From a virus, in IMG/VR virus record IMGVR_UViG_3300032401_000023, positions 1-45,481 of that record: a stretch of DNA of 45,481 nucleotides. One strand, given 5' to 3'. The notes beneath the pieces were generated by a model. It made no database searches, was not told the origin of the DNA, and saw only the letters and a list, made by a program, of their open reading frames with translations. Both the position numbers and the translations under genes were made by a program. How positions within the stretch are numbered: the stretch's first letter is position 1; every line of letters begins with the position of its first letter. Shown one piece after another: positions 438-45,481 of the stretch.

Positions 438-1277
438 ATGAAAAATGTAATCTTCGACTCACAAGTTCTATCTACACTAATGTCGTGTCCTCGATTGACT
501 GACTTCAAGTTCAATCGAAACTTCACAGCAATATCTGGTAAGTCTCCATCAATGGAAATGGGTTCTATCGTCCACAAATTTCTAGAGGTTTACTATCGTG
601 GACAAATACAAGGCATCTCTAAAGAAATGGCGGAGGGTAACGCCTATACTTCGGCGCTTGCGTATAGCCAATCAGATGAAGTTAGAAACTCCACGCCCGA
701 AGATATACAATGGGCGCTCGAAACATGCAACCAATACCTTGAATACTACAGAAATGACTTCTGGGTTCCGCTTGAGGTGGAGACAGTTAAACAAGAAATG
801 GTATATGAGGATGATGAAATCCGTGTAATGTGGAAAGCGAAGTTTGATTTAATCTCTGACACGAATCAAGGTATCTATCCAATAGATCATAAGACAATGA
901 AACAGCGCCGGGATACGTTGTCCATTAACAATCAGTTTATGGGCCAATGCATACTAATGAAGACCCGTCTTATGTTCGTGAATAAGATAGGTTTTCAGAA
1001 GTCATTAAAAGCCGCCGAAAAGTTCACACGCGCTACTATCAACTATACATTTGACACCCTTCTAGAATGGCAATCCGTCATTCTTCCATACTACGCAAAG
1101 CTATATCTAATGTATGCTGAGTCCGAATACTGGCCGCCAAACTTTACTCACTGCGAGAATAAGTTTGGTAACTGTCAGTTCGTAGATGTATGTTCCGCTG
1201 ATAGGAACGTAAGAGAAGAATTGATAGGACAAGATTTCATTGTAGGTGAAGCATGGAATCCACAGACGGAGGAATAG
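438..1277 (+). CDS. Cas4/RecB-like PD-(D/E)XK nuclease with Fe-S cysteines
   Basis: A 279-residue protein of the PD-(D/E)XK superfamily. Nuclease motifs are visible as WKAKFDLI and PIDHKT in the middle of the chain, giving the Asp and the D-x-K residues. Four cysteines, C17 near the N-terminus and C239, C246 and C252 near the C-terminus, have the Cas4/AddB arrangement that binds a 4Fe-4S cluster. In phages this family acts as a DNA exonuclease feeding strand-annealing recombination or repair. It opens the early operon and is followed two genes later by a Sak4-like ATPase, a known partnership. No CRISPR array or cas1 is present, so a role in spacer acquisition is not supported. Confidence 0.8.
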   Translation: MKNVIFDSQVLSTLMSCPRLTDFKFNRNFTAISGKSPSMEMGSIVHKFLEVYYRGQIQGISKEMAEGNAYTSALAYSQSDEVRNSTPEDIQWALETCNQYLEYYRNDFWVPLEVETVKQEMVYEDDEIRVMWKAKFDLISDTNQGIYPIDHKTMKQRRDTLSINNQFMGQCILMKTRLMFVNKIGFQKSLKAAEKFTRATINYTFDTLLEWQSVILPYYAKLYLMYAESEYWPPNFTHCENKFGNCQFVDVCSADRNVREELIGQDFIVGEAWNPQTEE

Positions 1278-1891: not shown

Positions 1892-1948
1892 ATGAGACTG
1901 AATGATGAATCTGAGAAAGAAGAAGATGCCAAACTTATCACAGACTGA
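1892..1948 (+). CDS. possible 18-codon leader ORF overlapping the Sak4-like gene
   Basis: The strongest ribosome site in this stretch, AAGGAGGT (1879-1886), is spaced correctly for ATG 1892, not for the annotated start of the ATPase at 1902 or 1926. The frame encodes MRLNDESEKEEDAKLITD and stops inside the next gene. It may be a translated leader that couples expression of the ATPase. It could equally be chance, with ribosomes starting at the ATG pair 1902/1905. Confidence 0.25.
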   Translation: MRLNDESEKEEDAKLITD

Positions 1949-2738
1949 CGCAACTTCACTCTACTGTATGTTTAAAGGTGAGCCAGGAACTAGAAAGTCC
2001 TCACAAGCTCTTTCATTTCCTACTCCACAATACTGGTTCTCATGGGATAGGAAGATGAGTTCTCTATTACTTCCTATGAGACAGTGGAAGATTGACCCTA
2101 AGTCCATAGACTATGATGACTATGATGATTGGACTAAGGCGCGCATTAAACTCGAACAGTTCCAAGTCAACTGTAAGTATAAGACTTTAGTCTTTGATTC
2201 AATTACCTCATGCGCGGATTCGGCATTACGTCAGACAATGAAACTTAAATCTGGAGTGACTAGACAATCTGGTGCTCAGGCAGGTAAACATGTAGGAGGT
2301 ATTGCAGTAAATGAGATTGAGGACTATATGGCAGAGTCCTCAGCTCTGATGGAACTAATCAGTTTAACTAAGGATATCCACTCTTACCACAAGATAAATA
2401 TCATCCTCATCGCGCATGTGATTCAAGCTGAGTATAAAAGTAGCTCCGGCCAGACTCACATGTCGCGCACCATTGTCACCGCAGGTAAACGTGTTGCACC
2501 TAAGATTCCTGCATATTGCGGAGAGGTGTATCACTTCAATATTAAACCCGGATTTAGAGAGGGAGCAGGAGGTTCATATTCTTTGTTGACCACCCATACT
2601 GGAGATGATTTCGCTAGGACAGCACTCCCTTTACCTAACGAGATTATCTTTAATGATGACTCACTTTACACTAAGTGGATTGAACCTGCAATTAAGGAAC
2701 TAAAAGAAGTAACTGCTATCCCACAACCCATACCGTAA
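1902..2738 (+). CDS. Sak4-like RecA-fold ATPase (phage recombinase/annealing factor)
   Basis: A 278-residue P-loop protein of the AAA_24/Sak4 type. The Walker A motif is GEPGTRKS (residues 26-33), with Arg in place of the usual Gly before Lys. Walker B is KTLVFDS, with its Asp at about residue 99. Sak4 proteins promote single-strand annealing and recombination together with a phage SSB. The next gene is a candidate SSB and an exonuclease-like gene lies upstream, so the set would form a phage recombination module. The start is uncertain: 1902, 1905 and 1926 (MPNLSQTD) are all possible and none has an ideal ribosome site. Confidence 0.75.
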   Translation: MMNLRKKKMPNLSQTDATSLYCMFKGEPGTRKSSQALSFPTPQYWFSWDRKMSSLLLPMRQWKIDPKSIDYDDYDDWTKARIKLEQFQVNCKYKTLVFDSITSCADSALRQTMKLKSGVTRQSGAQAGKHVGGIAVNEIEDYMAESSALMELISLTKDIHSYHKINIILIAHVIQAEYKSSSGQTHMSRTIVTAGKRVAPKIPAYCGEVYHFNIKPGFREGAGGSYSLLTTHTGDDFARTALPLPNEIIFNDDSLYTKWIEPAIKELKEVTAIPQPIP

Positions 2739-2756: not shown

Positions 2757-3149
2757 ATGCCATTAGTTGAGTTCACCGAGTCTGATCTACTCCGTAATAA
2801 GATCGTCAGTCCTGCATGGTATAGGCTTGAACTTGGCCTAGTATCTGAATGGAGTCCTACCAAAGCACAGGATTCTAACAACTGTATCATCGAAGGCGTT
2901 ATTCAGTCTAACGCTGATAATGGTGATCCTTCATTCTCTGGAGTTCCTATCACACTCCAGTTCAATGATAAGCCTCGTGCGCGTGGATTTATTGAGGGAT
3001 TTCTGCGTGGATTAGGCGTAGACGTTTTACCCGGACGTTTCGATCTTGGTGCGGCATCTGGAAAGTTCGTAGATGCTTTCATTGAGAATGAGACATTCGA
3101 GGGACGCATCCGTAATAGATGTAACCATAAGTATAGGGTTGCGCGATGA
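2757..3149 (+). CDS. putative ssDNA-binding protein (DUF669-like)
   Basis: A 130-residue, mostly beta-predicted protein preceded by an AGGAG site (2746-2750). Sequence such as SEWSPTKAQDSNNCIIEGVI and the following ARGFIEGFLRGLG resemble the small DUF669-type proteins that sit beside Sak4-like ATPases and are thought to bind single-stranded DNA. The assignment rests on general sequence pattern and context, not on a clear motif. The stop overlaps the next start by four bases (ATGA). Confidence 0.5.
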   Translation: MPLVEFTESDLLRNKIVSPAWYRLELGLVSEWSPTKAQDSNNCIIEGVIQSNADNGDPSFSGVPITLQFNDKPRARGFIEGFLRGLGVDVLPGRFDLGAASGKFVDAFIENETFEGRIRNRCNHKYRVAR

Positions 3150-3731: not shown

Positions 3732-4019
3732 ATGGAAAATCGAATAACCGGAACAATCATCCACTTATCAAAACAAGGATGGGGATTTGTTACTACACCA
3801 GATATTCCATTTACACGTATCTTCTTTCATTGGACAGCATTGAATCAAGATACCCTGAACTTCACTGAGCTGAAGCGAGGAATGAGAGTAGAGTTTGAAA
3901 CTAAGGAGTTTCTACCTCGTGGATTGCGTGCAATTAAAATCTCTGTAATAAAGGAGAACCTAAATGATGATGACAGTAGAGGAACTGATAACGGAATTAC
4001 AGAAACACTCGAAGGATAA
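3732..4019 (+). CDS. cold-shock domain protein
   Basis: A 95-residue protein whose first 70 residues form a cold-shock (OB-fold) domain. The start GTIIHLSKQGWGFV carries an RNP1-like GWGFV and IFFHW is RNP2-like, followed by LKRGMRVEFE. These proteins bind single-stranded RNA or DNA and melt secondary structure. The C-terminal 25 residues are polar and unrelated to the fold. Two strong hairpins precede the gene, which may matter because cold-shock proteins often act on, and are controlled by, structured leaders. The next small gene overlaps its end in another frame. Confidence 0.8.
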   Translation: MENRITGTIIHLSKQGWGFVTTPDIPFTRIFFHWTALNQDTLNFTELKRGMRVEFETKEFLPRGLRAIKISVIKENLNDDDSRGTDNGITETLEG

Positions 4020-4119
4020 GTTCGTGTTTATGAGGATAGACGGCGGTTACGAAGATTACATTCCAATGGAAATAGAAAGTGTAAGGGGAGAGTTGATCAT
4101 AACGGTTGAATATGAATGA
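3964..4119 (+). CDS. small hypothetical protein, 51 aa
   Basis: An AAGGAG site (3950-3955) precedes a run of three ATGs (3964-3972); the frame continues for 51 codons (MMMTVEELITELQKHSKDKF...) and overlaps both the end of the cold-shock gene and the start of the polymerase gene. The protein begins with a helix (TVEELITELQK) followed by beta-like strands. This pattern is common in small phage proteins of unknown role. Confidence 0.5.
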   Translation: MMMTVEELITELQKHSKDKFVFMRIDGGYEDYIPMEIESVRGELIITVEYE

Positions 4120-6586
4120 TAAAAAGTATGTACCAGCAACAGGTAATGCAAGCGCACGTTTGATGGTGGTTGGTGAGTCTCCAGCATATAAAGAAGTAGA
4201 ACTAGGTAAACCTTTCGTCGGACCATCAGGACAAGAATTAGATTCTATTCTGCGCGCTTGTCTTATACCACGACATACGTTATGGATAAGTAACGTCTGT
4301 AAATACTTTGTTCCGCCTAATGAGGGAACAAAGAAAATACCATTTGCCATACGTGCGGAACGCTATGGTATAAACATAGCTGAGTGTCTCTCCGAACTAC
4401 AGCATGAGATAAATCAAATAAAGCCCAATGCAATTCTTGCACTCGGGGAAACTGCATTATGGGCACTAACAGGTAAGAAGTCCATAACTAATTATAGAGG
4501 CTCAATTTTATTCGGGATGGGATGTAAAGTTATACCCACATTCCATCCCGCGCACTTATTATATCAAACGTCTGACGCGGAAATGAAAGGATACTGGAAT
4601 AGACAGATAATGATCCTAGACTTTAAGCGCGCAAACACCGAATCAAGCCATAAAGAATTTCATCCCACTCCACGCAATCTTACCATATGTAGAAATTCAT
4701 CCCAACTTCACGACTTCATTTCCCGCCATTCAAAACATACAAAACCTGCCATAGATATAGAAGCTGGAGGACTATGTATTCCAGTATGTGTAGGAATAGC
4801 ATTTGATCCGAATGAAGGAATAACCGTTCCTTTATGGAATATAGATCCTTCGCTATCGTCTATACCTGACGCTGATATGGTTCAGATGTGGAATCTGCTG
4901 AGTCAACTGTTGGCAACCAGTGATGTAATAGGACAGAATTTTAAGTATGACCAAGATAAACTTGCTCGGCTCGGTTTTACTGTTCATAGCCTTGCATCCG
5001 ATACTATGCTTAAGGCTTTTACTATCAATCCTGAACTACCTAAAGCCCTTGCTTTCAACACGAGCATTTATACTAGAGAACCCTTTTACAAAGATGACGG
5101 GATGTATAAAGGTGAGTTTACGGACTTACTAATAGGATGTGCTAGAGATGCGTGTGTTACCAAAGAAATAGATTTAGCGATGGACGCCGACATAGATGAA
5201 ATGGAGATGCGTGACTGGTATGAGAATTTCACTATGAAACTTCACGGGCTATACCTAGATATAGAGTCTGAAGGTTTCAATATCGATCCTGTCAGACGCG
5301 AACAGCTCATAGCAAAGTATATTGTATGGTCGGAAAGACTCGCGCACGAACTATTCATCCTAACAGAAGCCTACATTAATGTCAACTCTCCAAAACAAGT
5401 CTACATCCTACTGTATGATGTACTTAAGATTCCGAAAAAACCCGGAGTAGGAGAGGAAATACTTACTGCGCTACTTAGCAATATTTCCTTAAAGTTAGAT
5501 GACAATAAACGTCGTATCATAGAAATAATACTTGAGAAACGTAGAGTAGATAAGACCATTGGAAACTATCTAATGGCTATGCCTGACTTTGATGGAAAGA
5601 TGAAGACTACATATTACTTGTGCTTAGAAACTGGACGTACTTCAACAAGTCAGCTAGAACCGCCGATTAGACCATTGATAGAATACAAAGACTATGAAGG
5701 TAAGAAGAAGCATAAGGCTATAGGCACAGCTTTCCAAACATTAACTAAGCATGGTGACATAGGACAGGATGTTCGGAGTCAATATATACCCGAACCTGGA
5801 CACATATTCATACAAGCTGATTCCGCCCAAGCAGAAGCTAGAGTAGTATTCCTATTAGCTAATGATGAGGAAGCTTTAGATGCCATTGATAAACACGACT
5901 ATCACGCCCTTACAGCAAGTTGGTTTTTCGGTGGTACTGAAGATGACTATTCCAAAAGAAAACTCGGATATGAATCTCCTATACGATTTGCTGGAAAAAC
6001 TCTTAGGCACGCTGGACACCTTGGAGCTGGAAAAAGAAGGGCGTGCATTGAACTTAATACTCAAGCTAGAAAGTATAAAATCCCAATCCAAATAACTGAA
6101 TCTATAGCAGAGCGCGCGCTCAAGATATTTCACGCCAAGCAGCCTAAGATTCAATTAGTATTTCATAAAGGAATTATAGAGAGTTTGGAAAAGAATAAAC
6201 GAATCCTAGAGGCTCCAGTACCTTACGGAATAGAGGCCAAACATGGTGGAAAGAGACAATTCTTTGAACGATGGGGAGACGACTTATTTAGAGAAGCTTT
6301 TGCTTATATTCCACAGCGGGCTGTTACGGATAATACTAAAGCCTGCGCTCTCAGAGTCAGGGAAGCCGCACCGTGGATTAAAATTATATTGGAAGCTCAC
6401 GACGCTCTATTGTGCAGCGTTCCTATTGAACGTGTTGGTGAGGCTGCTAATATTCTTAAACCCGAAATGGAGCGGCCAATTAATTTCAATAACTGTAGTC
6501 TATCCCGCAGATCCTTAGTCATTCCGTGTGATATTGAGACAGGAATGAATTACCAGGACTTGAGTAAATTTAAGGAGGTTGTATGA
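4112..6586 (+). CDS. uracil-DNA glycosylase-like domain fused to family A DNA polymerase
   Basis: An 824-residue replicative polymerase. Residues about 15-165 are a UDG-superfamily fold with GESPA (motif 1 position) and HPAHLL (motif 3 position). Residues about 205-360 are a 3'-5' exonuclease with DIE (215-217) and NFKYD. Residues about 370-810 are the polymerase, with motif A DSAQAEAR (570-577) and a motif B helix around KTLRHAGHLGAG. Motif C is AHDALL, where the usual HDE is HDA. The glycosylase part may let the enzyme sense or remove uracil during synthesis. ATG 4112 is preferred over TTG 4106; its stop overlaps the next start (ATGA). Confidence 0.85.
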   Translation: MNDKKYVPATGNASARLMVVGESPAYKEVELGKPFVGPSGQELDSILRACLIPRHTLWISNVCKYFVPPNEGTKKIPFAIRAERYGINIAECLSELQHEINQIKPNAILALGETALWALTGKKSITNYRGSILFGMGCKVIPTFHPAHLLYQTSDAEMKGYWNRQIMILDFKRANTESSHKEFHPTPRNLTICRNSSQLHDFISRHSKHTKPAIDIEAGGLCIPVCVGIAFDPNEGITVPLWNIDPSLSSIPDADMVQMWNLLSQLLATSDVIGQNFKYDQDKLARLGFTVHSLASDTMLKAFTINPELPKALAFNTSIYTREPFYKDDGMYKGEFTDLLIGCARDACVTKEIDLAMDADIDEMEMRDWYENFTMKLHGLYLDIESEGFNIDPVRREQLIAKYIVWSERLAHELFILTEAYINVNSPKQVYILLYDVLKIPKKPGVGEEILTALLSNISLKLDDNKRRIIEIILEKRRVDKTIGNYLMAMPDFDGKMKTTYYLCLETGRTSTSQLEPPIRPLIEYKDYEGKKKHKAIGTAFQTLTKHGDIGQDVRSQYIPEPGHIFIQADSAQAEARVVFLLANDEEALDAIDKHDYHALTASWFFGGTEDDYSKRKLGYESPIRFAGKTLRHAGHLGAGKRRACIELNTQARKYKIPIQITESIAERALKIFHAKQPKIQLVFHKGIIESLEKNKRILEAPVPYGIEAKHGGKRQFFERWGDDLFREAFAYIPQRAVTDNTKACALRVREAAPWIKIILEAHDALLCSVPIERVGEAANILKPEMERPINFNNCSLSRRSLVIPCDIETGMNYQDLSKFKEVV

Positions 6587-28140: not shown

Positions 28141-29156
28141 CGAATTCCCAACTCTCGAAGTCTGTTCCAATCGTAATAATCTAAAATCTTAGGAAGCTCA
28201 TCTGAGAATGAAACGTAGTTAAAGTTCTCAGGACGGACATTAGAATAATTCATATCACGAGAAGTCCCGTCGAGATATTTAATTCCGGGGATTCCCGCAG
28301 CTTGCATATCAGAAGATAGGGCTTTAGGAAGATAAGTTTGTGAACCTAATCTATAAATATCACTTCCTCTAACTGTTACACCAGCTTCAGTTGCCCTATT
28401 AACTGGTTCACCAACATAACGATTACTAGCCAAGTAATCTTTAATAGTCTTAGGTTGTCTACTAATTGAATTATGCCAATCAAGCATCTTATCAATAGCT
28501 TCATCAGGAATTTCAGCTTTTACTATACCACCCCTAACTTTAGTAGGTTGGAGTTTAAGAACATTATGTTTAATTAAAGTACTTAAATAATTACGTGCTC
28601 TAGTTCCATTATTATCATTTGCTAATCGAACTAAACTAGGTAACGCATTATTATCTGTTAGATGGCTAAAATTAGTTAATTGGTAATCTAGTTCATTTAA
28701 AGCATTAACTTTAGCACTACTTCCTAAGGTATAGGGATTACGAACTCTAAATCTTTGACGAGCTGCTGCTGCAACATCATGAAGTTTCTTACCAGAAGGA
28801 AACGTAATTTCTAAAGGATCAAAACTCTTAAACCTATCAAAATAATCTTTGGCAACTTTAGGATTACCCGCTAAATAATGACCATACCCATAAGCTTGCA
28901 CGCCTTCACCAGTCCCTATTTTACTTAAATCAAACTTACTAAATTTAGGTGCACCAGTTCCGTGATATACTATAGCAGCATTACTACCCCCTATAGGCAT
29001 AAGTCCTAAAGCCCGGATAGCAGGATTATCTTGTAAACTTAATAAAAAGTCTCTAACTAAATCAGATGTAGTAGCCGCGTGCATTCGAGAAGTTAAAGGC
29101 TTCCCTTTAATCCATGCATCGCTAGGCCCGATAAATGATGCGCGTCGGTCAGGCAT
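28137..29156 (-). CDS. ADP-ribosyltransferase-like protein (ART-PolyVal type), 339 aa
   Basis: The segment YHGTGAPKFSKFDLSKIGTG (His65) and QAYGYGHYLA (about 87-96) followed by KDYF match the NAD-binding pattern of ART domains found in phage polyvalent proteins. The C-terminal NYVSFSDELPKILDYY would supply the last strand. The gene sits between terminase and portal. I infer a virion-packaged or late-expressed enzyme that may modify host proteins. The catalytic Glu is not unambiguous, so activity is uncertain. It ends in an ATGA overlap. Confidence 0.65.
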   Translation of the reverse strand: MPDRRASFIGPSDAWIKGKPLTSRMHAATTSDLVRDFLLSLQDNPAIRALGLMPIGGSNAAIVYHGTGAPKFSKFDLSKIGTGEGVQAYGYGHYLAGNPKVAKDYFDRFKSFDPLEITFPSGKKLHDVAAAARQRFRVRNPYTLGSSAKVNALNELDYQLTNFSHLTDNNALPSLVRLANDNNGTRARNYLSTLIKHNVLKLQPTKVRGGIVKAEIPDEAIDKMLDWHNSISRQPKTIKDYLASNRYVGEPVNRATEAGVTVRGSDIYRLGSQTYLPKALSSDMQAAGIPGIKYLDGTSRDMNYSNVRPENFNYVSFSDELPKILDYYDWNRLRELGIR

Positions 29157-31705
29157 TAATGATACCTTCTCACACCAACTACTCTATCACTATCTAATCG
29201 CTTAGCTTGTCTGTAGAAGGCGGTCCAGTCATTACTTTCTGTAACCTTTCTAATAAGTTCTTCTTCCTTTTGGATGCGATTCATCTCAACTTGTGCAGTT
29301 GTAACATAACCATCGACTGCATCAACTAGATAACGTAAGCCATCAATCGGGTCATCTCCAGAAAATTCCTTAATGTCCTCTACTTTTCTTTCATCATATG
29401 AACAGGCTTTAATCGCTTCAATAAGTGTTGGACAACAGGAAAAGATTTGCAACTTAGGAATATTATTTTCTGGAATAATAGGAGTGAACTGCGCTGTGTA
29501 TTTCTTATGCGCGACTTCCCCGCCTACACGCAAGACTCTCAGAGCTAATTCCTCATCATAGACTAGGGTTTCAGTAGGAGGTAATACACGGTTCGACTTC
29601 CATCGCAGGTACTCATGAATTAACATTTTACCCGCGACACGCGAACCGGGCTTATTATCTGATAGTTCTATTTCACGCCCTAACGCTTCACTAATCTGCT
29701 GTTGAATGGTATGTTCCTGACCACGATCTTGGCCTGCTGATTTACAGAAACGGATAAGTTTAGGACTTTCCTTATCTATAAATTCTCTAACTTCAGCAGC
29801 CCAGTCGGTAATTCTAGTCTTAGTCCAGTACAACTCTCTATAGATATAAACCCGTTTAGATGGTGAGATTGCAGCAAATCCAATCCAAGTCATCGCAGCA
29901 AATCCCCAGTCACCTATTACGATTCGCGGCCACCATTCTGGAATATTAAATGGTTCAATGACATGTAAAGCATTCTCAGGTTCTTCAGGATAGTGTCTAT
30001 CACGAAATTCATCAAACACCGAACCCTGGAATGCATCCCAATCTCCGTAAAGTTTTGCTCGTTTTTCTGCTTCTGGCAAGGCTTCAAGAGACTTTCTATA
30101 GTTAGGATCAATACCAGGATTATCTAAAAGAGTGGAAAAAATGTAAATACGTTTATTACCACCCTTTCCAATGATAACCTTTCCACCCTCAGGGCAGGGT
30201 TTTACAAACCTATTACGGAACCAAGTATGACCAATATTACCAGGCATACCACAACAACGAATAATAGCTGGTAACGTAGAGTCAGAAGAACGGACTCTGG
30301 TAAATCCTATGTATAAGTACTGATATTCGGTGAATGATGTTATCTCATCAGGCGTAAATAAATTGATTTCTGTTGAGTCATAACGATGAACGTCCTGTTC
30401 ATCCTCACAATGTCCCAAGATAATACGCGCGCCTGAAGGGAATGTCCATGTCATAGTAGACTGATTTAGTTTAGCCCCAAAAGGTTTATAAAACCTGCGT
30501 GTTCTCGGGATGATTTCGTCACGGATCTCAGGATAAGTTCTACGTAAGAAGAGCTGCTTAAACCTTGGATGTTCATGGAACTTATGAATTATACCGTATA
30601 GTAATAAAAGGTCAGTGTTGTGGGTAGGAATACATGCTTCAGTAACAAGGTAAACTCCACCGTCTACTTGTAGGCACTTAGTTGGCACAGTCTCTACTTC
30701 TTCAATCGTATTGATATAATGCCACTTATTTCTAGTAGTATTGTTATTATCCTTATTTCTTACTATATCATGTCTTTTACTTTTACGCGATAAACTAAAG
30801 ACTGGAACTTTAGTTGCAAATCCAATTCTATACCTATCTTTATAATTCTGACCATTTAATACTGATTTGTTTACACTACAATGTGCCTTAATTCCTAAAG
30901 AACGAATTAATTTGAGAGAATCAAGCGCAAGTTTTTCATCTGACAATGAAAGTTCAATCCCACTTCCGTTAGGATTTACAGTACCATCTGTATCCATTAA
31001 TCCCTGAAGTAAAGCAAGTCTTGCATCGAATTCTAAGTTATAATAGAGTTCTGGAATATGTTTGTTACCAAGTAAATTTAAGTCTCTTAGCTCACCTAAA
31101 ATCTTAAAGATACCATATTCGGGTGCCCTATCTCCAGTATTATGTCGAGATAACTCATATACTTGGCCAACTCTACTCACAATCTCATCATCAACTCCAG
31201 TAAATCTAGCAAATTCTGTTGAACCATCTCCTAACCAAACACCTAAAGTATAGGGATCAATTGGATATTTCCAATCTTCTTTTTCAAGTGGTTCTGAAAC
31301 AATAATAGACCATTTATCGGGGCTTGAAAATAGTTCAGACGTTTTTAGAATCTGATAAGTACTAAGTTTATTTCTAGTAAGTTGATTCTTATGAACAATC
31401 CAAAGATGATCAGCATCAGCAATTACTGATATACCAGAATCAAAAGTAATCTTATAGCATTTGTAGTCTATAAAAATCTCTGATTCAAACCATACTATTG
31501 TAGACTTGCCTTCATGATTATAAACAAAATCTCCGGGATGAATATCTTGAATAGTTTTATAACCTTCTGGAGTTGGAATAATAGTATCTAAAGCTAGAGC
31601 TTTCCCGCTGCCAGCACCTCCAGCATATGCAGCTTCCTTAATTGGGAAAGGAAGTCCCAAGAATAACGACTGTTTCTTCGACGGACGCCAAGTATCTTCA
31701 GTCAT
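29156..31705 (-). CDS. terminase large subunit interrupted by an intein
   Basis: An 849-residue precursor. Residues 1-35 and 364-849 form the terminase (521 residues once spliced), and residues 36-363 are an intein. Splicing rejoins Walker A as GAGSGKT. LFLRRTYPEIRDEIIPR and INLFTPDEITSF (Walker B-like) follow, and the nuclease part begins at VIGDWGFAAMTWIGF. The enzyme packages DNA into the head through the portal encoded downstream. Its start codon overlaps the stop of a 54-residue gene (TAATG). Confidence 0.9.
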   Translation of the reverse strand: MTEDTWRPSKKQSLFLGLPFPIKEAAYAGGAGSGKALALDTIIPTPEGYKTIQDIHPGDFVYNHEGKSTIVWFESEIFIDYKCYKITFDSGISVIADADHLWIVHKNQLTRNKLSTYQILKTSELFSSPDKWSIIVSEPLEKEDWKYPIDPYTLGVWLGDGSTEFARFTGVDDEIVSRVGQVYELSRHNTGDRAPEYGIFKILGELRDLNLLGNKHIPELYYNLEFDARLALLQGLMDTDGTVNPNGSGIELSLSDEKLALDSLKLIRSLGIKAHCSVNKSVLNGQNYKDRYRIGFATKVPVFSLSRKSKRHDIVRNKDNNNTTRNKWHYINTIEEVETVPTKCLQVDGGVYLVTEACIPTHNTDLLLLYGIIHKFHEHPRFKQLFLRRTYPEIRDEIIPRTRRFYKPFGAKLNQSTMTWTFPSGARIILGHCEDEQDVHRYDSTEINLFTPDEITSFTEYQYLYIGFTRVRSSDSTLPAIIRCCGMPGNIGHTWFRNRFVKPCPEGGKVIIGKGGNKRIYIFSTLLDNPGIDPNYRKSLEALPEAEKRAKLYGDWDAFQGSVFDEFRDRHYPEEPENALHVIEPFNIPEWWPRIVIGDWGFAAMTWIGFAAISPSKRVYIYRELYWTKTRITDWAAEVREFIDKESPKLIRFCKSAGQDRGQEHTIQQQISEALGREIELSDNKPGSRVAGKMLIHEYLRWKSNRVLPPTETLVYDEELALRVLRVGGEVAHKKYTAQFTPIIPENNIPKLQIFSCCPTLIEAIKACSYDERKVEDIKEFSGDDPIDGLRYLVDAVDGYVTTAQVEMNRIQKEEELIRKVTESNDWTAFYRQAKRLDSDRVVGVRRYH
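30617..31600 (-). mobile_element. intein with LAGLIDADG endonuclease, class 3-like
   Basis: Residues 36-363 of the terminase precursor (328 aa). The first residue is Ala instead of Cys or Ser, and the downstream junction is THN then Thr. Block B is DADHLWIV with Trp102 and block F is KCLQVDG with Cys344; with Thr364 these give the W-C-T set described for class 3 inteins. The endonuclease part has LGVWLGDGS (154-162) and LLQGLMDTDG (232-241). All splice residues are present, so it is probably active. Insertion is exactly between Lys and Thr of the P-loop. Confidence 0.9.
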
Positions 31706-38992: not shown

Positions 38993-39199
38993 CTAGCCTT
39001 GGGCATCGCATAGTTCCAAGCTCGAAAACAGACGCGCCCTAATTGGCTGGGGTTCACGTTGGCACCCATACGCAGCCACAATCTGAATATTGCCGTCATA
39101 GTAGATATTGTCAATGACGTGATATGCGCCGCATATCGGGCAGTGATCGCGCATAGGGTGATAGTCTGACATACAGATAGGGCAAGTCTTAAGTTCCAT
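38993..39199 (-). CDS. small zinc-ribbon protein, 68 aa
   Basis: The start at 39199 (MELKTCPICMSD) overlaps the stop of the upstream gene as TGATG. The first 35 residues hold CPIC and CPICG, a rubredoxin-like zinc ribbon, and are nearly the same as the N-terminus of the endolysin gene at 44654. The C-terminal half is unrelated to the lysozyme. It appears to be the source or sister of the domain fused to the endolysin. Confidence 0.7.
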   Translation of the reverse strand: MELKTCPICMSDYHPMRDHCPICGAYHVIDNIYYDGNIQIVAAYGCQREPQPIRARLFSSLELCDAQG

Positions 39200-39408
39200 C
39201 ACTTTGCACTCACAACCACGCCATCCTCCACGAGAACAGCAGAATACCACTTATGTGGTTGCGGATAATGCGGACCTTCTACGGTATCGCGCCCGTCGCG
39301 TGTGGCCAAAAACATTCCCGAGGGGTTATATGGCCAGTGTTTTACTCCTGCCTTTACGGCGCTGATAAATTCCTTCTTCGTGCGGTAGTTCGGATCAACG
39401 TATGCCAT
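39199..39408 (-). CDS. small conserved-type phage protein, 69 aa
   Basis: A GGGGAGGT site precedes ATG 39408. The product MAYVDPNYRTKKEFISAVKA contains YNPSGMF, GRDTVEGPHYPQPHKWYSAV and ends in GVVVSAK, a compact pattern I associate with small phage proteins of unknown role. It is first in a two-gene leftward unit. Its 59-base leader, including the first codons, is present in inverted orientation at 44601-44659 with one mismatch. Confidence 0.65.
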   Translation of the reverse strand: MAYVDPNYRTKKEFISAVKAGVKHWPYNPSGMFLATRDGRDTVEGPHYPQPHKWYSAVLVEDGVVVSAK

Positions 39409-39461
39409 AGTTACCTCCCCTAGTTAGTCTGACGGTTTACCCCTGTCGGTTTGCAGATCTG
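39403..39461 (-). repeat. duplicated leader and start, minus-strand copy
   Basis: This 59-base stretch, read on the minus strand, matches 44601-44659 at 58 positions; the only difference is C against T in the CGAYAGG part. It covers the 5' leader, ribosome site and first two codons of the gene starting at 39408. The two copies are inverted relative to each other and about 5.1 kb apart. Confidence 0.95.
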
Positions 39462-39696
39462 ACCTCCCTTGCCCCCACCTGCTGCACAATCCATGCCAAA
39501 CGTAATTCCACGCCAATTGAGGCATTTTATAACAATTCTACTCCGGACTAGACTTTCTAACCAGACATCTGCCCAGGACCAGACTTTCCGGATTAGTCTG
39601 GCTGGTAACAAAACTGTAATCCGCCCGAAAGTCATATTGCTTATTTTGCTAAGTCAACAGTCCGGCAAGGTAAACTAAATCTTTAAACTCCGGGGA

Positions 39697-40025: not shown

Positions 40026-40289
40026 ATGGCACAACATTTACACAAATACTATAGAGCACAATTAGGATTTGGTCAAGTATGGGCGTGCGCGTTTCCGGAC
40101 TGTAATCATCACATGCCGGAACATTATGCTTCATTGTTGAATGGTAAGCGGTCTATCTGTTGGGATTGTGGTGAACCTATGATGCTACATCCCCAGAATC
40201 TCACGATGGATCGTCCAGTATGTGAAGCATGTAGACTTGGAATTGAAAGTGTGGACAAACTACCTTTCATGTCGTCTAACAGTAACTAA
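40026..40289 (+). CDS. zinc-binding phage protein, 87 aa
   Basis: The sequence has CAFPDCNHHMPEHYAS, SICWDCGEPMML and RPVCEACRLG, giving three metal-binding pairs that could hold one or two zinc ions. This layout, from HKYYRAQLG onward, is familiar from small proteins found in many phages and has no proven role. It is the first gene after the promoter at 39869. Confidence 0.7.
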   Translation: MAQHLHKYYRAQLGFGQVWACAFPDCNHHMPEHYASLLNGKRSICWDCGEPMMLHPQNLTMDRPVCEACRLGIESVDKLPFMSSNSN

Positions 40290-40496: not shown

Positions 40497-41192
40497 ATGT
40501 TCCACGAATTCAATGGTTCTCACTTTGATATAAACAAATGTTCGGTGTGCAATAACTTGCGCCCCGAACATAGGTGTGATTCTTGTTTCAAGGATAATGT
40601 TCCAGTAACATGGAATGGTAAACTTCTACTTTGCATAGAATGCAAGGTATTCGAGGTTCCTACTCCGGCAGTCCCGCAACTAGAAGTTAGTCAGACCCCT
40701 ATCCCTATCGAAGATACCACAATCAGAGTCGTAAGTGACTTATTCAACGCGCATACCGCGTCTATTGAGGCACTCCGCATTTGCGTAGAATCAGACGACA
40801 CAATTGAGAATAAGAACTATGAGTTTGCGCGTAAGCTTGAACAACGATACCTCAACAATAAACAAATAATCGAGAAGTCACGAAACATAACGCAACAGAC
40901 ACTTGCGGATAACAGGGCAATTCAGACACGATACAACGAATTAGCGAAGCAACTAAGGGCTGAAGAACGCGAGAAAATTAAAATTCAGGACACAAAATAC
41001 CAGCCCGTAGTTAAACCTGTTAAGCCAGTAAAGATTCTGACAGTTAAAAACTATGACATGAAGGGAATAAAAATAGCTGCCCAACTAGCGAATATTCCTG
41101 AACAGATTATTACGGGCATCTGTCTTGTGAAGAATATCACACCTAACGAGGCAGTTCATATTATTAGAGGAGCGGGATATGAAAAGCTGTAG
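40497..41192 (+). CDS. zinc-finger and coiled-coil protein, 231 aa
   Basis: Residues 10-55 carry CSVC, CDSC and CIEC pairs, at least one zinc ribbon. Residues about 85-165 form a long charged helix (EFARKLEQRYLNNKQIIEKSR). Residues about 170-200 are Lys/Pro/Val-rich linker and the C-terminal 40 residues (IKIAAQLANIPEQIITGICLV) form a small helical domain that could bind nucleic acid. It lies directly before the SprT-SNF2 gene and may be its partner, but that is context only. Confidence 0.5.
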   Translation: MFHEFNGSHFDINKCSVCNNLRPEHRCDSCFKDNVPVTWNGKLLLCIECKVFEVPTPAVPQLEVSQTPIPIEDTTIRVVSDLFNAHTASIEALRICVESDDTIENKNYEFARKLEQRYLNNKQIIEKSRNITQQTLADNRAIQTRYNELAKQLRAEEREKIKIQDTKYQPVVKPVKPVKILTVKNYDMKGIKIAAQLANIPEQIITGICLVKNITPNEAVHIIRGAGYEKL

Positions 41193-41216: not shown

Positions 41217-43316
41217 ATGACACGAGAAAACGCAACTAAGATTCTACGAGACGAACTAACTAAGCATGGATTGTCTAATTGGCACGTTAGATTGTCCAAT
41301 ACTGAAGCTGCGCTAGGTATGTGTATGCATAAGGATGAATGTATCATCCTATCCACATTTCATCTCGGAACGCATCCCGACCCGGAGATAGTAAATACTA
41401 TACGGCATGAAGTAGCACATGCTTTGTGTCCAGGGCAGGGACATAATGATATATGGATAGCTAAGGCGCGCGAAGTGGGATGCACGTCCTTTGCCCCATG
41501 TAGTCACTTGTCATTCTCACCTGACATAATCGATGCTATTCGTTCTGGTGCGTCTGTTGAGGTCACATTCGAGACTGAAGTTATACACCGTCCGAAGTAT
41601 AACATTACCAGACTCCAAGATAAATGTGAAGTATGTGGTAAAGTCGCAACAGTCTCCAGAGAGTGTACGGTAAAGTCTAAGGATGAGACTAAACCCGATA
41701 AAAAGTTCATGTTTCTAGAGTGTGGTCATTTAATAGTCAGGACCATACCCAAAGGAACTCCGTTCGGGACATTAGTCTCTAATTGGTGGAAAGATGAAAT
41801 TAAATCCTGCCAGCATGAGTGGAATAAACATCAGTGTATGAACTGTGGAGAGTATAGGCTAATTCCATTCCAACAGGATGGTGGAAGATTCATCGAAGCT
41901 GCACTAAGTATCAATAAAGGTGCGGCTGTATTCGATGAGATGGGACTAGGTAAGACCATTCAGGCATTAGCAGATATTAAGTTCCATCCTGAACGGACTC
42001 CAGTTCTATTTATCACAAAGTCATCTATTAAGTTCCAATTCTTCAAGGAAATCCTTAGATGGCTCGGTCCTACCTATCTACCACAAGTCATTAGTTCATC
42101 TAATGAATTTCTAATCCCAAAACTCAAGTGCTACATCATCTCGTATGATATGCTAGTCTTTAAGGAAAGAACTAGCAAGAAAGGTAAAGCCATACGACAA
42201 GGATTCGACGGTGCACGTTTCAAGGAATTAGGCATTAAGACTGTAATATTGGATGAGTGTCAGCAGATAAAGAATCCCGACGCAGCCAGAACTCAAGAAG
42301 TTCGTAAGATATGCAAGGAATGTCATGTCGTAGCATTAAGCGGGACACCGTGGAAGAATAGAGGATCAGAGTTCTTTACAGTCCTGAACATGCTCGCGCC
42401 TATGAAATTCCCATCATATCAGGGATTTATTGATAGGTGGGTAGAATACTATTGGGACGGACAGTTCAGAAAACAAGGCGGAATTAAGAATATTAAGATG
42501 TTCAGAGAATACGTCAAGGACATAGTAATCCGTCGTGAAATTCATGAAGTAGCGACGGAAATGCCTAGCATAAATAGGACTATGTTAAATACTCAATTAG
42601 ATAAGATTGAGCAAATGACATATGATGACGTAGAAACTGAATTCGTAACTTGGTATAACCAGCGTGTAATAGACGGAACCGAAGATGATTTTGACGCAAG
42701 TGGTAACGTATTGGCAAAGATGGCTAGGATGCGCCATCTAACAGGATTATCCAAGATTTCATCTACGGTCGGATATGTAAAGGATTTCATAGAAGAAACA
42801 GAACGAAAGATTACAGTCTTTGTTCATCACAAAGATGTTGGTGAAATTCTCTACAATCAGATAAAAGAGAATCTCCCAGACGTAAAGGTATTCAAACTCA
42901 CCGCTGATATGGACCCGCTCACACGATCCAAAACCCAAGACGAATTTAATAGCACTCCAGTTTGTGTATTGGTAGCATCTACCTTATCATCTGGAGAGGG
43001 TATCAATCTTCAGACGTGCGGAGACGCTATATTACACGAGCGTCAGTGGAACCCACAGAATGAGGATCAAGCTGCACCTGGAAGGTTTAGACGAATAGGA
43101 TCCGCGCATAAAGTTGTGAATGTAATATTCATGACAGCTTCAGGAACTATAGACGAGATTCTCGCAGGTATAGTTGAGAGAAAGCGCGCGCATTTCCATT
43201 CATCTATGAATAAAGGTGAAGCCGCTATATGGAGTCAGCGCGAACTTACGAAGGAACTTGCAGAAGGAATTATTAAGAATTGGAAGACTAAACAGAAACA
43301 GCATGTAGCAGCATGA
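41217..43316 (+). CDS. SprT-like metalloprotease fused to SNF2 helicase
   Basis: A 699-residue protein. Residues 1-100 are a SprT/Spartan-like peptidase with HEVAH (64-68) and a third His at 76. Residues about 135-212 hold CEVCG, ECGH and CMNCG zinc sites. Residues about 215-690 are an SNF2 superfamily 2 motor: DEMGLGKT (240-247), LDECQQIKN, SGTPWKN, VLVASTLSSGEGINLQ and AAPGRFRRIG. SprT proteins cleave proteins crosslinked to DNA and SNF2 motors move along duplex DNA, so one chain could strip and digest DNA-bound proteins. All key motifs look intact. Confidence 0.9.
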   Translation: MTRENATKILRDELTKHGLSNWHVRLSNTEAALGMCMHKDECIILSTFHLGTHPDPEIVNTIRHEVAHALCPGQGHNDIWIAKAREVGCTSFAPCSHLSFSPDIIDAIRSGASVEVTFETEVIHRPKYNITRLQDKCEVCGKVATVSRECTVKSKDETKPDKKFMFLECGHLIVRTIPKGTPFGTLVSNWWKDEIKSCQHEWNKHQCMNCGEYRLIPFQQDGGRFIEAALSINKGAAVFDEMGLGKTIQALADIKFHPERTPVLFITKSSIKFQFFKEILRWLGPTYLPQVISSSNEFLIPKLKCYIISYDMLVFKERTSKKGKAIRQGFDGARFKELGIKTVILDECQQIKNPDAARTQEVRKICKECHVVALSGTPWKNRGSEFFTVLNMLAPMKFPSYQGFIDRWVEYYWDGQFRKQGGIKNIKMFREYVKDIVIRREIHEVATEMPSINRTMLNTQLDKIEQMTYDDVETEFVTWYNQRVIDGTEDDFDASGNVLAKMARMRHLTGLSKISSTVGYVKDFIEETERKITVFVHHKDVGEILYNQIKENLPDVKVFKLTADMDPLTRSKTQDEFNSTPVCVLVASTLSSGEGINLQTCGDAILHERQWNPQNEDQAAPGRFRRIGSAHKVVNVIFMTASGTIDEILAGIVERKRAHFHSSMNKGEAAIWSQRELTKELAEGIIKNWKTKQKQHVAA

Positions 43317-44585: not shown

Positions 44586-44600
44586 TGAAATGGACGCTAT

Positions 44601-44659
44601 CAGATCTGCAAACCGATAGGGGTAAACCGTCAGACTAACTAGGGGAGGTAACTATGGCA
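44601..44659 (+). repeat. duplicated leader and start, plus-strand copy
   Basis: Identical at 58 of 59 positions to the minus-strand sequence 39461-39403. It contains an AGGGGAGGT ribosome site and the ATGGCA start of the endolysin fusion. Homology resumes, more diverged, from about 44665 through the zinc ribbon to near 44762, matching the minus strand down to about 39100; about 200 bases of the other locus are missing here. Confidence 0.95.
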
Positions 44660-45256
44660 AAAGTAATGGAACTTAAGACTTGCCCCATTTGCATGTCAGA
44701 CTATCATCCTATGCGTGACCACTGTCCAGTATGTGGCGCATATCATGTCATTGACAATATCATTTGTCGTGAAGGTTCAAAATATACCAATGACCCTATG
44801 GATCGTGGTGGACCTACTAAATTCGGTATCACTCTAGCAGATTGGAGTGATTATACTAAGATACTTGCAACGGAAGATGAAATAAAGAATCTCGCACTCC
44901 CACAGGCTCAAGAATTTTATCGCAAGAAGTATGTGAGAGAACCAGGATTCCTTAAATTAGATCATGATAAATGGCTACAGGAATTCATGGTAGACACCGC
45001 AGTTCTTGAAGGAATACCTACAGCGATTAAAATGCTTCAGCATGTGGTAGGTGTAAAAGAAGACGGTATCATCGGTCCCATTACAATAGAAGCTGTATTA
45101 AGTATCCCTCCTCCAATACTAAAGAGAAAAATGTTAGAGGCGCGCATGACTCACCTTTTGAGGTGCGCGTTATATGACGTTCCGTTAGATGTAGTAAATA
45201 CTACTCAATTGAGGTGGTTACGTGGGTGGCTTAATAGGTTGTCGGATTTCTTTTAA
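44654..45256 (+). CDS. endolysin: zinc ribbon fused to GH108 muramidase
   Basis: A 200-residue protein. Residues 5-35 are a CPIC/CPVCG zinc ribbon (C10, C13, C24, C27) shared with the small protein at 38993. Residues about 38-130 are a GH108 N-acetylmuramidase, with catalytic Glu40 in REGSKYTNDPMDRGGPTKFG. The rest, with VGVKEDGIIGPITIEAV, matches the peptidoglycan-binding module usual for the family. The lysozyme would cut host peptidoglycan at lysis. It lies outside the late operon. A strong GGGGAGGT site precedes the start. The fusion replaces the normal first helix of GH108. Confidence 0.85.
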   Translation: MAKVMELKTCPICMSDYHPMRDHCPVCGAYHVIDNIICREGSKYTNDPMDRGGPTKFGITLADWSDYTKILATEDEIKNLALPQAQEFYRKKYVREPGFLKLDHDKWLQEFMVDTAVLEGIPTAIKMLQHVVGVKEDGIIGPITIEAVLSIPPPILKRKMLEARMTHLLRCALYDVPLDVVNTTQLRWLRGWLNRLSDFF

Positions 45257-45410: not shown

Positions 45411-45481
45411 GCCCCATTAACCCAACTGGCAGAGGTAAACGACTTAAAATCGTTACAGTCAGAGTTCGAATCTTTGATGGG
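45411..45481 (+). tRNA. tRNA-Leu(UAA), 3' end cut by the window
   Basis: Acceptor strand GCCCCAT, D-arm with AACTGGCAGA, anticodon arm AACGA-CTTAAAA-TCGTT with anticodon UAA, a 5-base variable loop, and T-arm CAGAG-TTCGAAT-CTTTG are all present. The window ends after ATGGG, five bases into the 3' acceptor strand. The anticodon reads UUA (Leu), but the variable loop is short, unlike the long arm of ordinary bacterial tRNA-Leu. If the ends are joined, the next bases CCA give one acceptor mismatch and a discriminator A. Confidence 0.75.

What the first reader, a model, noticed from the sequence alone, without database searches (positions are those of the whole stretch)
41217..43316. SprT protease and SNF2 helicase in one phage protein
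The HEVAH...H zinc peptidase site, two or more zinc ribbons and a complete SNF2 motor are all intact in one 699-residue chain. Known SprT/Spartan proteases digest proteins crosslinked to DNA, and SNF2 motors displace DNA-bound proteins. A fused machine could clear host chromatin proteins, crosslinks or defence complexes from phage DNA. The upstream 231-residue zinc/coiled-coil protein and small zinc proteins form a tight operon with it and may be partners.
Basis: partly seen in the sequence, partly recalled or inferred. Interest (0 to 1): 0.8.

Follow-up and report, generated by a model that had tools for sequence, protein, structure and literature searches.

The report
Phage protease fused to DNA motor
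A widespread but uncultured group of tailed viruses makes one protein that joins a DNA-repair-type protease to a DNA-walking motor, always encoded beside the virus's own recombination and replication genes, probably to chew proteins stuck on DNA out of the way.

Summary
ORF 41217-43316 (+) encodes 699 residues with a SprT metallopeptidase domain (HEVAH + His76), two zinc ribbons and a complete SNF2 motor. It is not an assembly error. In IMG/VR, 87 distinct homologues carry the same fusion, with all four catalytic/zinc residues invariant in 87/87. An AlphaFold model of the N-terminus matches archaeal minimal metallopeptidases, human Spartan and Wss1. The gene sits in strict synteny: a zinc/helical gene (the 231-aa protein) upstream in 69/69 loci with enough sequence; a PD-(D/E)XK exonuclease (72/72) and Sak4 (38/38) downstream. 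It is therefore a recombination/replication protein rather than an injected effector. The protease is a separable module: at least six lineages lack it with no remnant, and one close pair shows it swapped between otherwise similar genes. The ribbons and the 231-aa neighbour stay with the motor. No such fusion turned up in 50,697 phage records, 72,556 plasmids or about 85,000 prokaryote genomes (pattern search), nor in the papers searched. Best reading: a translocase that carries a DNA-dependent protease to protein roadblocks on phage DNA, resembling human FANCJ (unfoldase) plus SPRTN in one chain. Proteolysis and substrate are unproven.

The parts
41217..43316 (+). SprT-SNF2 fusion protein gene, 699 aa
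41217..41492 (+). SprT metallopeptidase domain, residues 1-92
   Evidence: Pfam PF10263 over cut-off; AlphaFold pLDDT about 89-98 in this part; Foldseek matches to selecase, abylysin, jannalysin and SPRTN
41406..41420 (+). HEVAH zinc/catalytic motif, residues 64-68
   Evidence: H64, E65 and H68 invariant in 87/87 fused homologues
41442..41444 (+). His76, presumed third zinc ligand
   Evidence: invariant in 87/87
41625..41729 (+). zinc ribbon 1, C137-x2-C140 ... C169-x-H171
   Evidence: ligands conserved in 87/87 fused and 6/6 protease-less proteins
41808..41846 (+). zinc ribbon 2, C198-x-H200 ... C207-x2-C210
   Evidence: 86/87 fused, 5/6 protease-less
41913..42644 (+). SNF2 N-terminal RecA lobe (residues 233-476), Walker A 242-247, DECQ 346-349
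   Evidence: Pfam PF00176; motifs
42777..43100 (+). Helicase_C lobe (residues 521-628) with motifs V and VI
   Evidence: Pfam PF00271; motifs
40497..41192 (+). 231-aa protein: N-terminal Cys pairs, probably helical middle, C-terminal small domain; 24 nt before the fusion gene
   Evidence: present upstream on the same strand in 69/69 related loci with at least 2 kb upstream; alignment A3; no Pfam/PHROG/NCBIfam family
40026..40289 (+). 87-aa Cys/His protein; six invariant Cys and two invariant His (H4, H6)
   Evidence: present in 57/60 related loci, upstream in 40 and elsewhere in the module in the rest; alignment A4
438..1277 (+). PD-(D/E)XK (Cas4/RecB-like) exonuclease; next conserved gene downstream in relatives (the window is cut so that it falls at the other end)
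   Evidence: Pfam PDDEXK_1, PHROG exonuclease; downstream in 72/72 loci
1902..2738 (+). Sak4-like single-strand annealing protein
   Evidence: phrog_124; downstream in 38/38 loci
2757..3149 (+). 130-aa conserved protein of the module, unknown
   Evidence: 35/35 loci
3732..4019 (+). cold-shock-domain protein of the module
   Evidence: Pfam CSD; 33/34 loci
4106..6586 (+). UDG-exonuclease-PolA single-chain DNA polymerase of the module
   Evidence: Pfam UDG, DNA_pol_A; phrog_17; BLASTP matches in 49 related loci

Best explanation
It is a phage recombination/replication motor with a built-in SprT protease. Shown: an SNF2 motor with all motifs, two zinc ribbons, an N-terminal SprT-fold domain with invariant catalytic and zinc residues, purifying selection on both halves, and strict placement at the head of the phage exonuclease-Sak4-polymerase module. 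Inferred from the known families: the SNF2 motor translocates on double-stranded phage DNA (replication forks, recombination intermediates, ends being resected) and pushes or partly unfolds bound proteins; the ribbons grip DNA or set the junction; the tethered SprT domain, as in human SPRTN, cuts proteins that will not come off (covalent DNA-protein crosslinks or very tight complexes), so that exonuclease, Sak4 and PolA can proceed. In human reconstitution the two steps need two proteins, FANCJ to unfold and SPRTN to cut; here they would be one chain. The protease is an optional module on the motor: some relatives live without it and it is exchanged between them, as expected if the load or kind of roadblock differs by host.
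For: Domain architecture and motifs. 87 distinct fused homologues in IMG/VR, catalytic residues invariant. Low dN/dS in the SprT part. N-terminal AlphaFold model (mean pLDDT 88) hits M. jannaschii selecase (4qhi, E 4e-4), abylysin (4jiu), jannalysin (4jix), human SPRTN (6mdx, E 3e-3, prob 1.00) and S. pombe Wss1 (5jig, prob 0.97, E 0.06). The motor fold hits SNF2 remodellers, CSB, Rad54 and RapA. Strict synteny with exonuclease 72/72, Sak4 38/38, cold-shock protein 33/34, and the 231-aa protein 69/69. In isolated Gordonia phage DumpTruck an SNF2 helicase without SprT also precedes a Cas4 exonuclease and a RecA-like gene; in Gordonia phage Emalyn a stand-alone SprT lies near HJ resolvase, RecA-like, Cas4 and PolA genes. 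[quoted passage not shown]
Against: No proteolysis, ATPase or DNA binding has been measured. Six protease-less lineages show the protease is not essential to the module. No substrate is indicated by sequence. Zinc geometry was not inspected in coordinates. SPRTN similarity is by fold and short motif only; by sequence profile it is weak (6mdx E 0.036).
Confidence: 0.52

Rival explanations
1. The motor delivers the protease to host or defence proteins on DNA (nucleoid proteins, RecBCD-like nucleases, restriction or BREX/DISARM-type complexes); the protease is a takeover or anti-defence tool and its loss or swapping reflects different host defences.
For: The SprT part is gained/lost and exchanged independently of the motor, as is usual for host-facing modules. 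A stand-alone SprT-like protein of mycobacteriophage LHTSCC (gp83) is listed as bactericidal and filamenting on overexpression (PMC7474061). SprT-like peptidases of jumbo phages were proposed to cut host proteins (PMC7824862).
Against: Strict replication-module synteny and inheritance with exonuclease and Sak4. The average pairwise identity of the SprT part (63%) is not lower than that of the motor (58%), which is not the fast divergence of an arms-race domain. Another phage SprT, Adephagia gp75, was scored as not cytotoxic. No defence target identified.
Confidence: 0.22
2. The SprT domain mainly processes the protein itself: it cleaves the linker (residues 93-132) to release the motor, or limits its own activity, as SPRTN autocleavage does.
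For: A boundary near residue 130 is where protease-less versions begin, so a free motor starting there is viable. Autocatalytic inactivation is known in SPRTN (PMC7826251, abstract).
Against: The linker block includes well conserved residues (D106, A107, R109, G111, T131-R132-L133-Q134) rather than a loose cleavage site, and protease-less relatives show no need for a processing step.
Confidence: 0.1
3. The SprT fold is kept only as a DNA- or protein-binding module and is catalytically idle.
For: Loss is tolerated in six lineages.
Against: The general-base Glu65 and all three His are invariant in 87/87; an idle fold would be expected to lose the Glu in some lineages.
Confidence: 0.06
4. The fusion is an assembly or annotation artefact of two genes.
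For: L043 has the two parts in overlapping frames, and six loci lack the SprT part.
Against: 87 distinct fused homologues on independent contigs from many metagenomes; L043 is a local small deletion/frame change.
Confidence: 0.01

Closest known systems
Stand-alone phage SprT-like proteases (e.g. mycobacteriophage Timshel gp78, Gordonia phage Emalyn gp30; phrog_1006)
   Same: About 40% identity over residues 1-88; SprT matches in 656 phage records
   Different: Short proteins without a motor; no phage record covers 80% of the fusion
Phage SNF2/HepA-type DNA helicases (phrog_62; Rhodothermus phage RM378, Gordonia phage DumpTruck gp58)
   Same: Same motor (up to 29% identity, E 4e-40) and, in DumpTruck, the same SNF2-Cas4-RecA gene order
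   Different: No SprT match in the chain
SPRTN/Spartan, Wss1, GCNA DNA-protein-crosslink proteases
   Same: SprT fold and HExxH...H site; structural hits 6mdx and 5jig
   Different: No motor in the chain; they recruit p97/Cdc48 or need FANCJ; eukaryotic regulatory motifs not examined here
Polyvalent proteins of phages and conjugative elements (zincin-like MPTase plus SWI2/SNF2 ATPase; Iyer et al. 2017, PMC5512222)
   Same: A zincin-type peptidase and an SNF2 ATPase can occur in one phage chain
   Different: Those are multi-domain early effectors delivered with the DNA, with other MPTase clades and often methylase/ART/ParB domains; the paper does not mention SprT. Here only two enzymes, encoded in the replication module
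Zorya ZorD, DISARM DrmD, DpdE defence SNF2 proteins
   Same: Similar SNF2 motor (PADLOC ZorD model E 1.5e-33; fold hit 8qy7)
   Different: Far under NCBIfam cut-offs (61.9 vs 1500 bits for ZorD); no nuclease domain found and no defence neighbours

Membership tests
SprT-like (PF10263) metallopeptidase | Pfam model over gathering score | tested here: met
   34.8 vs 25.6 bits
SprT-like (PF10263) metallopeptidase | HExxH plus downstream third His | tested here: met
   H64, E65, H68, H76 in 87/87
SprT-like (PF10263) metallopeptidase | zincin-type SprT fold | tested here: met
   Foldseek to 4qhi, 4jiu, 4jix, 6mdx, 5jig
SprT-like (PF10263) metallopeptidase | zinc-dependent proteolysis | not testable with these tools
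   needs purified protein
SPRTN/Spartan DNA-protein-crosslink protease | DNA-switched cleavage of crosslinked proteins | not testable with these tools
   works-like claim only
SPRTN/Spartan DNA-protein-crosslink protease | SHP/PIP/UBZ regulatory tail | not tested
   no dedicated motif search was run; Pfam scan listed only SprT-like, SNF2-rel, Helicase_C and ResIII
SNF2 family ATPase | SNF2-rel and Helicase_C lobes with motifs I, II, III, V, VI | tested here: met
SNF2 family ATPase | DNA-stimulated ATPase/translocation | not testable with these tools
   inferred from family
Polyvalent protein (MPTase-SNF2) | large multi-domain early effector with conflict domains (ArdC-N, methylase, ART, ParB) | tested here: not met
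   only SprT, ribbons and SNF2 in the chain; replication-module synteny
Zorya ZorD / DISARM DrmD | equivalog score cut-off | tested here: not met
   61.9 vs 1500 and 54.5 vs 610 bits

The most novel reading that the evidence does not exclude
A natural single-chain 'translocase plus crosslink protease': the SNF2 motor runs into and loosens roadblocks on phage DNA and the tethered SprT domain cuts them, doing in one phage protein what FANCJ and SPRTN do as two in human cells, with the protease a swappable cassette tuned to the host's roadblocks.
Probability: 0.4. Interest if true: 0.78.

Novelty: new variant of a known kind. Interest (0 to 1): 0.57.

Why it matters
Both parts are known, but their joining was not found in annotated phages, plasmids or prokaryote genomes searched here, nor in the papers searched, while it is a near-constant gene of a large uncultured phage group. 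It gives a compact, intact protein in which motor-coupled removal of DNA-protein roadblocks can be tested, with ready natural controls: relatives without the protease, and relatives with swapped proteases on nearly the same motor. It also hints that phages face enough DNA-protein roadblocks during replication to keep a dedicated protease on the job.

Tried and rejected
Assembly error: rejected by 87 fused homologues. Prokaryotic or prophage source: two genome-contig scans gave no fusion, only 22-25% identical SNF2 proteins matched in the motor region alone; four of 396 genomes of the phylum around G017 (the genome of L084, an Acidobacteriota MAG) have SprT-like ORFs of 254-321 aa that match only the protease part. 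A second SprT gene in protease-less phages: none found, no remnant DNA either. Plasmids: no fusion. A hit annotated 'DNA helicase' under the SprT match in Klebsiella phage phi1_146015 is only a short ORF (540 nt) between topoisomerase and rII genes, not a fusion. Whole-chain fold search says nothing about SprT because SNF2 dominates, so the N-terminus was modelled alone. Setting a search centre by locus id failed. Literature searches found no SprT-SNF2 report. Defence-system membership rejected.

Full report
1. The observation. The ORF at 41217-43316 (+) is real, 699 residues, start ATG, 24 nt after the stop of the 231-aa gene. Pfam places SprT-like at 19-91, SNF2-rel_dom at 233-476 and Helicase_C at 521-628, all over the curated cut-offs. 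PHROGs agree: SprT-type families phrog_1006, 3768, 10840 and 6445 on residues 1-97, and phrog_62 DNA helicase on 212-690, E 7e-81. The catalytic signature is HEVAH (64-68) with His76; two zinc ribbons follow (C137/C140/C169/H171; C198/H200/C207/C210), then all SNF2 motifs.

2. Not chance, not an assembly error. A scan of IMG/VR gave 69 loci, most of them full-length relatives at 46-63% identity. A profile scan found 206 relatives, best 80 kept. Together there were 97 distinct proteins: 87 fused, 10 without the motif in the sequence held. Of the ten, three are cut by contig ends (L044, L047, L048), one (L043) has the two parts in overlapping frames after a local deletion/frame change, and six lack the protease (L031, L040, L042, L045, L046, L059). 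H64, E65, H68, H76 and W80 are invariant in 87/87. Nei-Gojobori dN/dS in the SprT part, where computable, is mostly about 0.03-0.2, like the motor.

3. Fold. AlphaFold2 on the 37-row alignment gives mean pLDDT 83 for the full chain; the N-terminal 214 residues on a 79-row alignment give 88. Foldseek of that N-terminal model against the PDB returns, at the top, M. jannaschii selecase (4qhi, E 4e-4), P. abyssi abylysin (4jiu), jannalysin (4jix) and human Spartan (6mdx, E 3e-3, probability 1.00), and S. pombe Wss1 (5jig, E 0.06, probability 0.97). The full model hits SNF2 remodellers, CSB, Rad54, RapA and ZorD.

4. Surroundings. The window is one linear virus record; the conserved downstream genes fall at its left end, so the record is cut inside the module. 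In relatives with enough sequence, the 231-aa protein is upstream on the same strand in 69/69 (median gap 210 nt), the PD-(D/E)XK exonuclease is downstream in 72/72, Sak4 in 38/38, the 130-aa protein in 35/35 and the cold-shock protein in 33/34, with a PolA homologue (carrying UDG in the window) further downstream where BLASTP found it. The 87-aa Cys/His protein is present in 57/60, upstream in 40 and otherwise within the module (alignments). So the fusion heads the phage's recombination/replication module. Isolated phages show the parts apart in the same kind of module: Gordonia DumpTruck has SNF2 (gp58), Cas4 exonuclease (gp64) and a RecA-like gene (gp66); Gordonia Emalyn has a stand-alone SprT (gp30) near HJ resolvase, RecA-like, Cas4 and PolA genes.

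5. The protease is a separable module. On the motor-plus-ribbon tree the six protease-less proteins need six changes of state (quick tree with SH-aLRT only, unrooted, so loss is the likely but not the proven direction). No SprT gene was found elsewhere on their contigs, two of which are 46.6 and 47.7 kb, and tblastn finds no remnant in the loci held. All six keep the 231-aa gene and the exonuclease gene, and ribbon 1. In L025/L021 versus L028/L029 the motor is 94% and the ribbons 93% identical, but the SprT part only 53%. At DNA level most blocks of the upstream gene are 65-96% and of the motor about 78-94% identical per 100 columns, with the SprT part at 53-58% between them. The closest SprT to L028/L029 is in the L009/L010 group (65%), not in L025. 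This looks like a cassette exchange bounded near residue 130, the same place where protease-less versions begin. No formal recombination test was run.

6. Distribution and novelty. tblastn against 50,697 phage records finds 701 matching records, none covering 80% of the chain; the SprT part alone matches in 656 records and the motor alone in 326. Plasmids: none covering 80%. Two pattern scans of 84,980 prokaryote genomes found no fusion; 396 genomes of one phylum gave four with SprT-like ORFs of 254-321 aa only. Limits: pattern scans find only sequences that keep the chosen peptides; a very divergent fusion, or a eukaryotic one, would be missed. In the literature held, jumbo phages have SprT-like peptidases (PMC7824862), and polyvalent proteins combine other zincin-like peptidases with SNF2 ATPases (PMC5512222), which is the nearest conceptual precedent; no SprT-SNF2 fusion was found.

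7. How it most likely works. Shown: architecture, conservation, selection, synteny, modularity. Established for the families: SNF2 motors translocate on double-stranded DNA and displace proteins; SPRTN cuts DNA-bound proteins in a DNA-dependent way, and in reconstitution needs the helicase FANCJ to translocate into and unfold the crosslinked protein (PMC12279946). Inferred: the phage chain couples these two steps, clearing roadblocks so that exonuclease, Sak4 and PolA can work. Main rival: the protease is aimed at host or defence proteins on DNA; a stand-alone SprT-like protein of mycobacteriophage LHTSCC is bactericidal and causes filaments on overexpression (PMC7474061), whereas Adephagia gp75 is not cytotoxic.

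8. Verdict. Observation confirmed; interpretation partly supported. New variant of a known kind: two known families in a combination not found elsewhere here, near-constant in a large uncultured phage group, with a testable mechanism but no biochemical evidence yet. The host is unknown.

Noticed in passing
L049:5968-9138: The SNF2 motor of this relative carries an insert of about 300 aa with a LAGLIDADG domain exactly in Walker A (GLGK|T): an intein-like element in the ATP-binding loop of the SprT-SNF2 protein.
   Followed up: partly
29156-31705 (-): The window's terminase large subunit gene has a LAGLIDADG/Hom_end domain (residues about 225-297) between two terminase parts: probably an intein.
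   Followed up: partly
39104-39205 / 44660-44761 and 39398-39462 / 44600-44664: Inverted repeats (88% and 95%) flank the 5 kb segment that holds the SprT-SNF2 operon. They duplicate a 5' region coding a small zinc peptide (MELKTCPICMSDYHPMRDHCP.CGAYHVIDN), so that the endolysin gene at 44654 begins with it. Possible invertible or copied segment.
   Followed up: partly
4106-6586 (+): One chain with uracil-DNA glycosylase, a weak 3'-5' exonuclease match and PolA; phrog_17 covers nearly the whole chain, so this looks like a known phage kind.
   Followed up: partly
45411-45481 (+): A tRNA-Leu (TAA) is cut by the right end of the record; could be a phage tRNA or an attachment site.
   Followed up: no
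L043:5992-8078: The SprT and SNF2 parts lie in two overlapping frames after a small deletion/frame change: a natural split or a sequencing error.
   Followed up: partly
8054-31705 (-): Of the ten large genes of this region scanned, only three had any PHROG hit (terminase, an endolysin-like protein, a weak major head protein): a very divergent tailed phage.
   Followed up: partly
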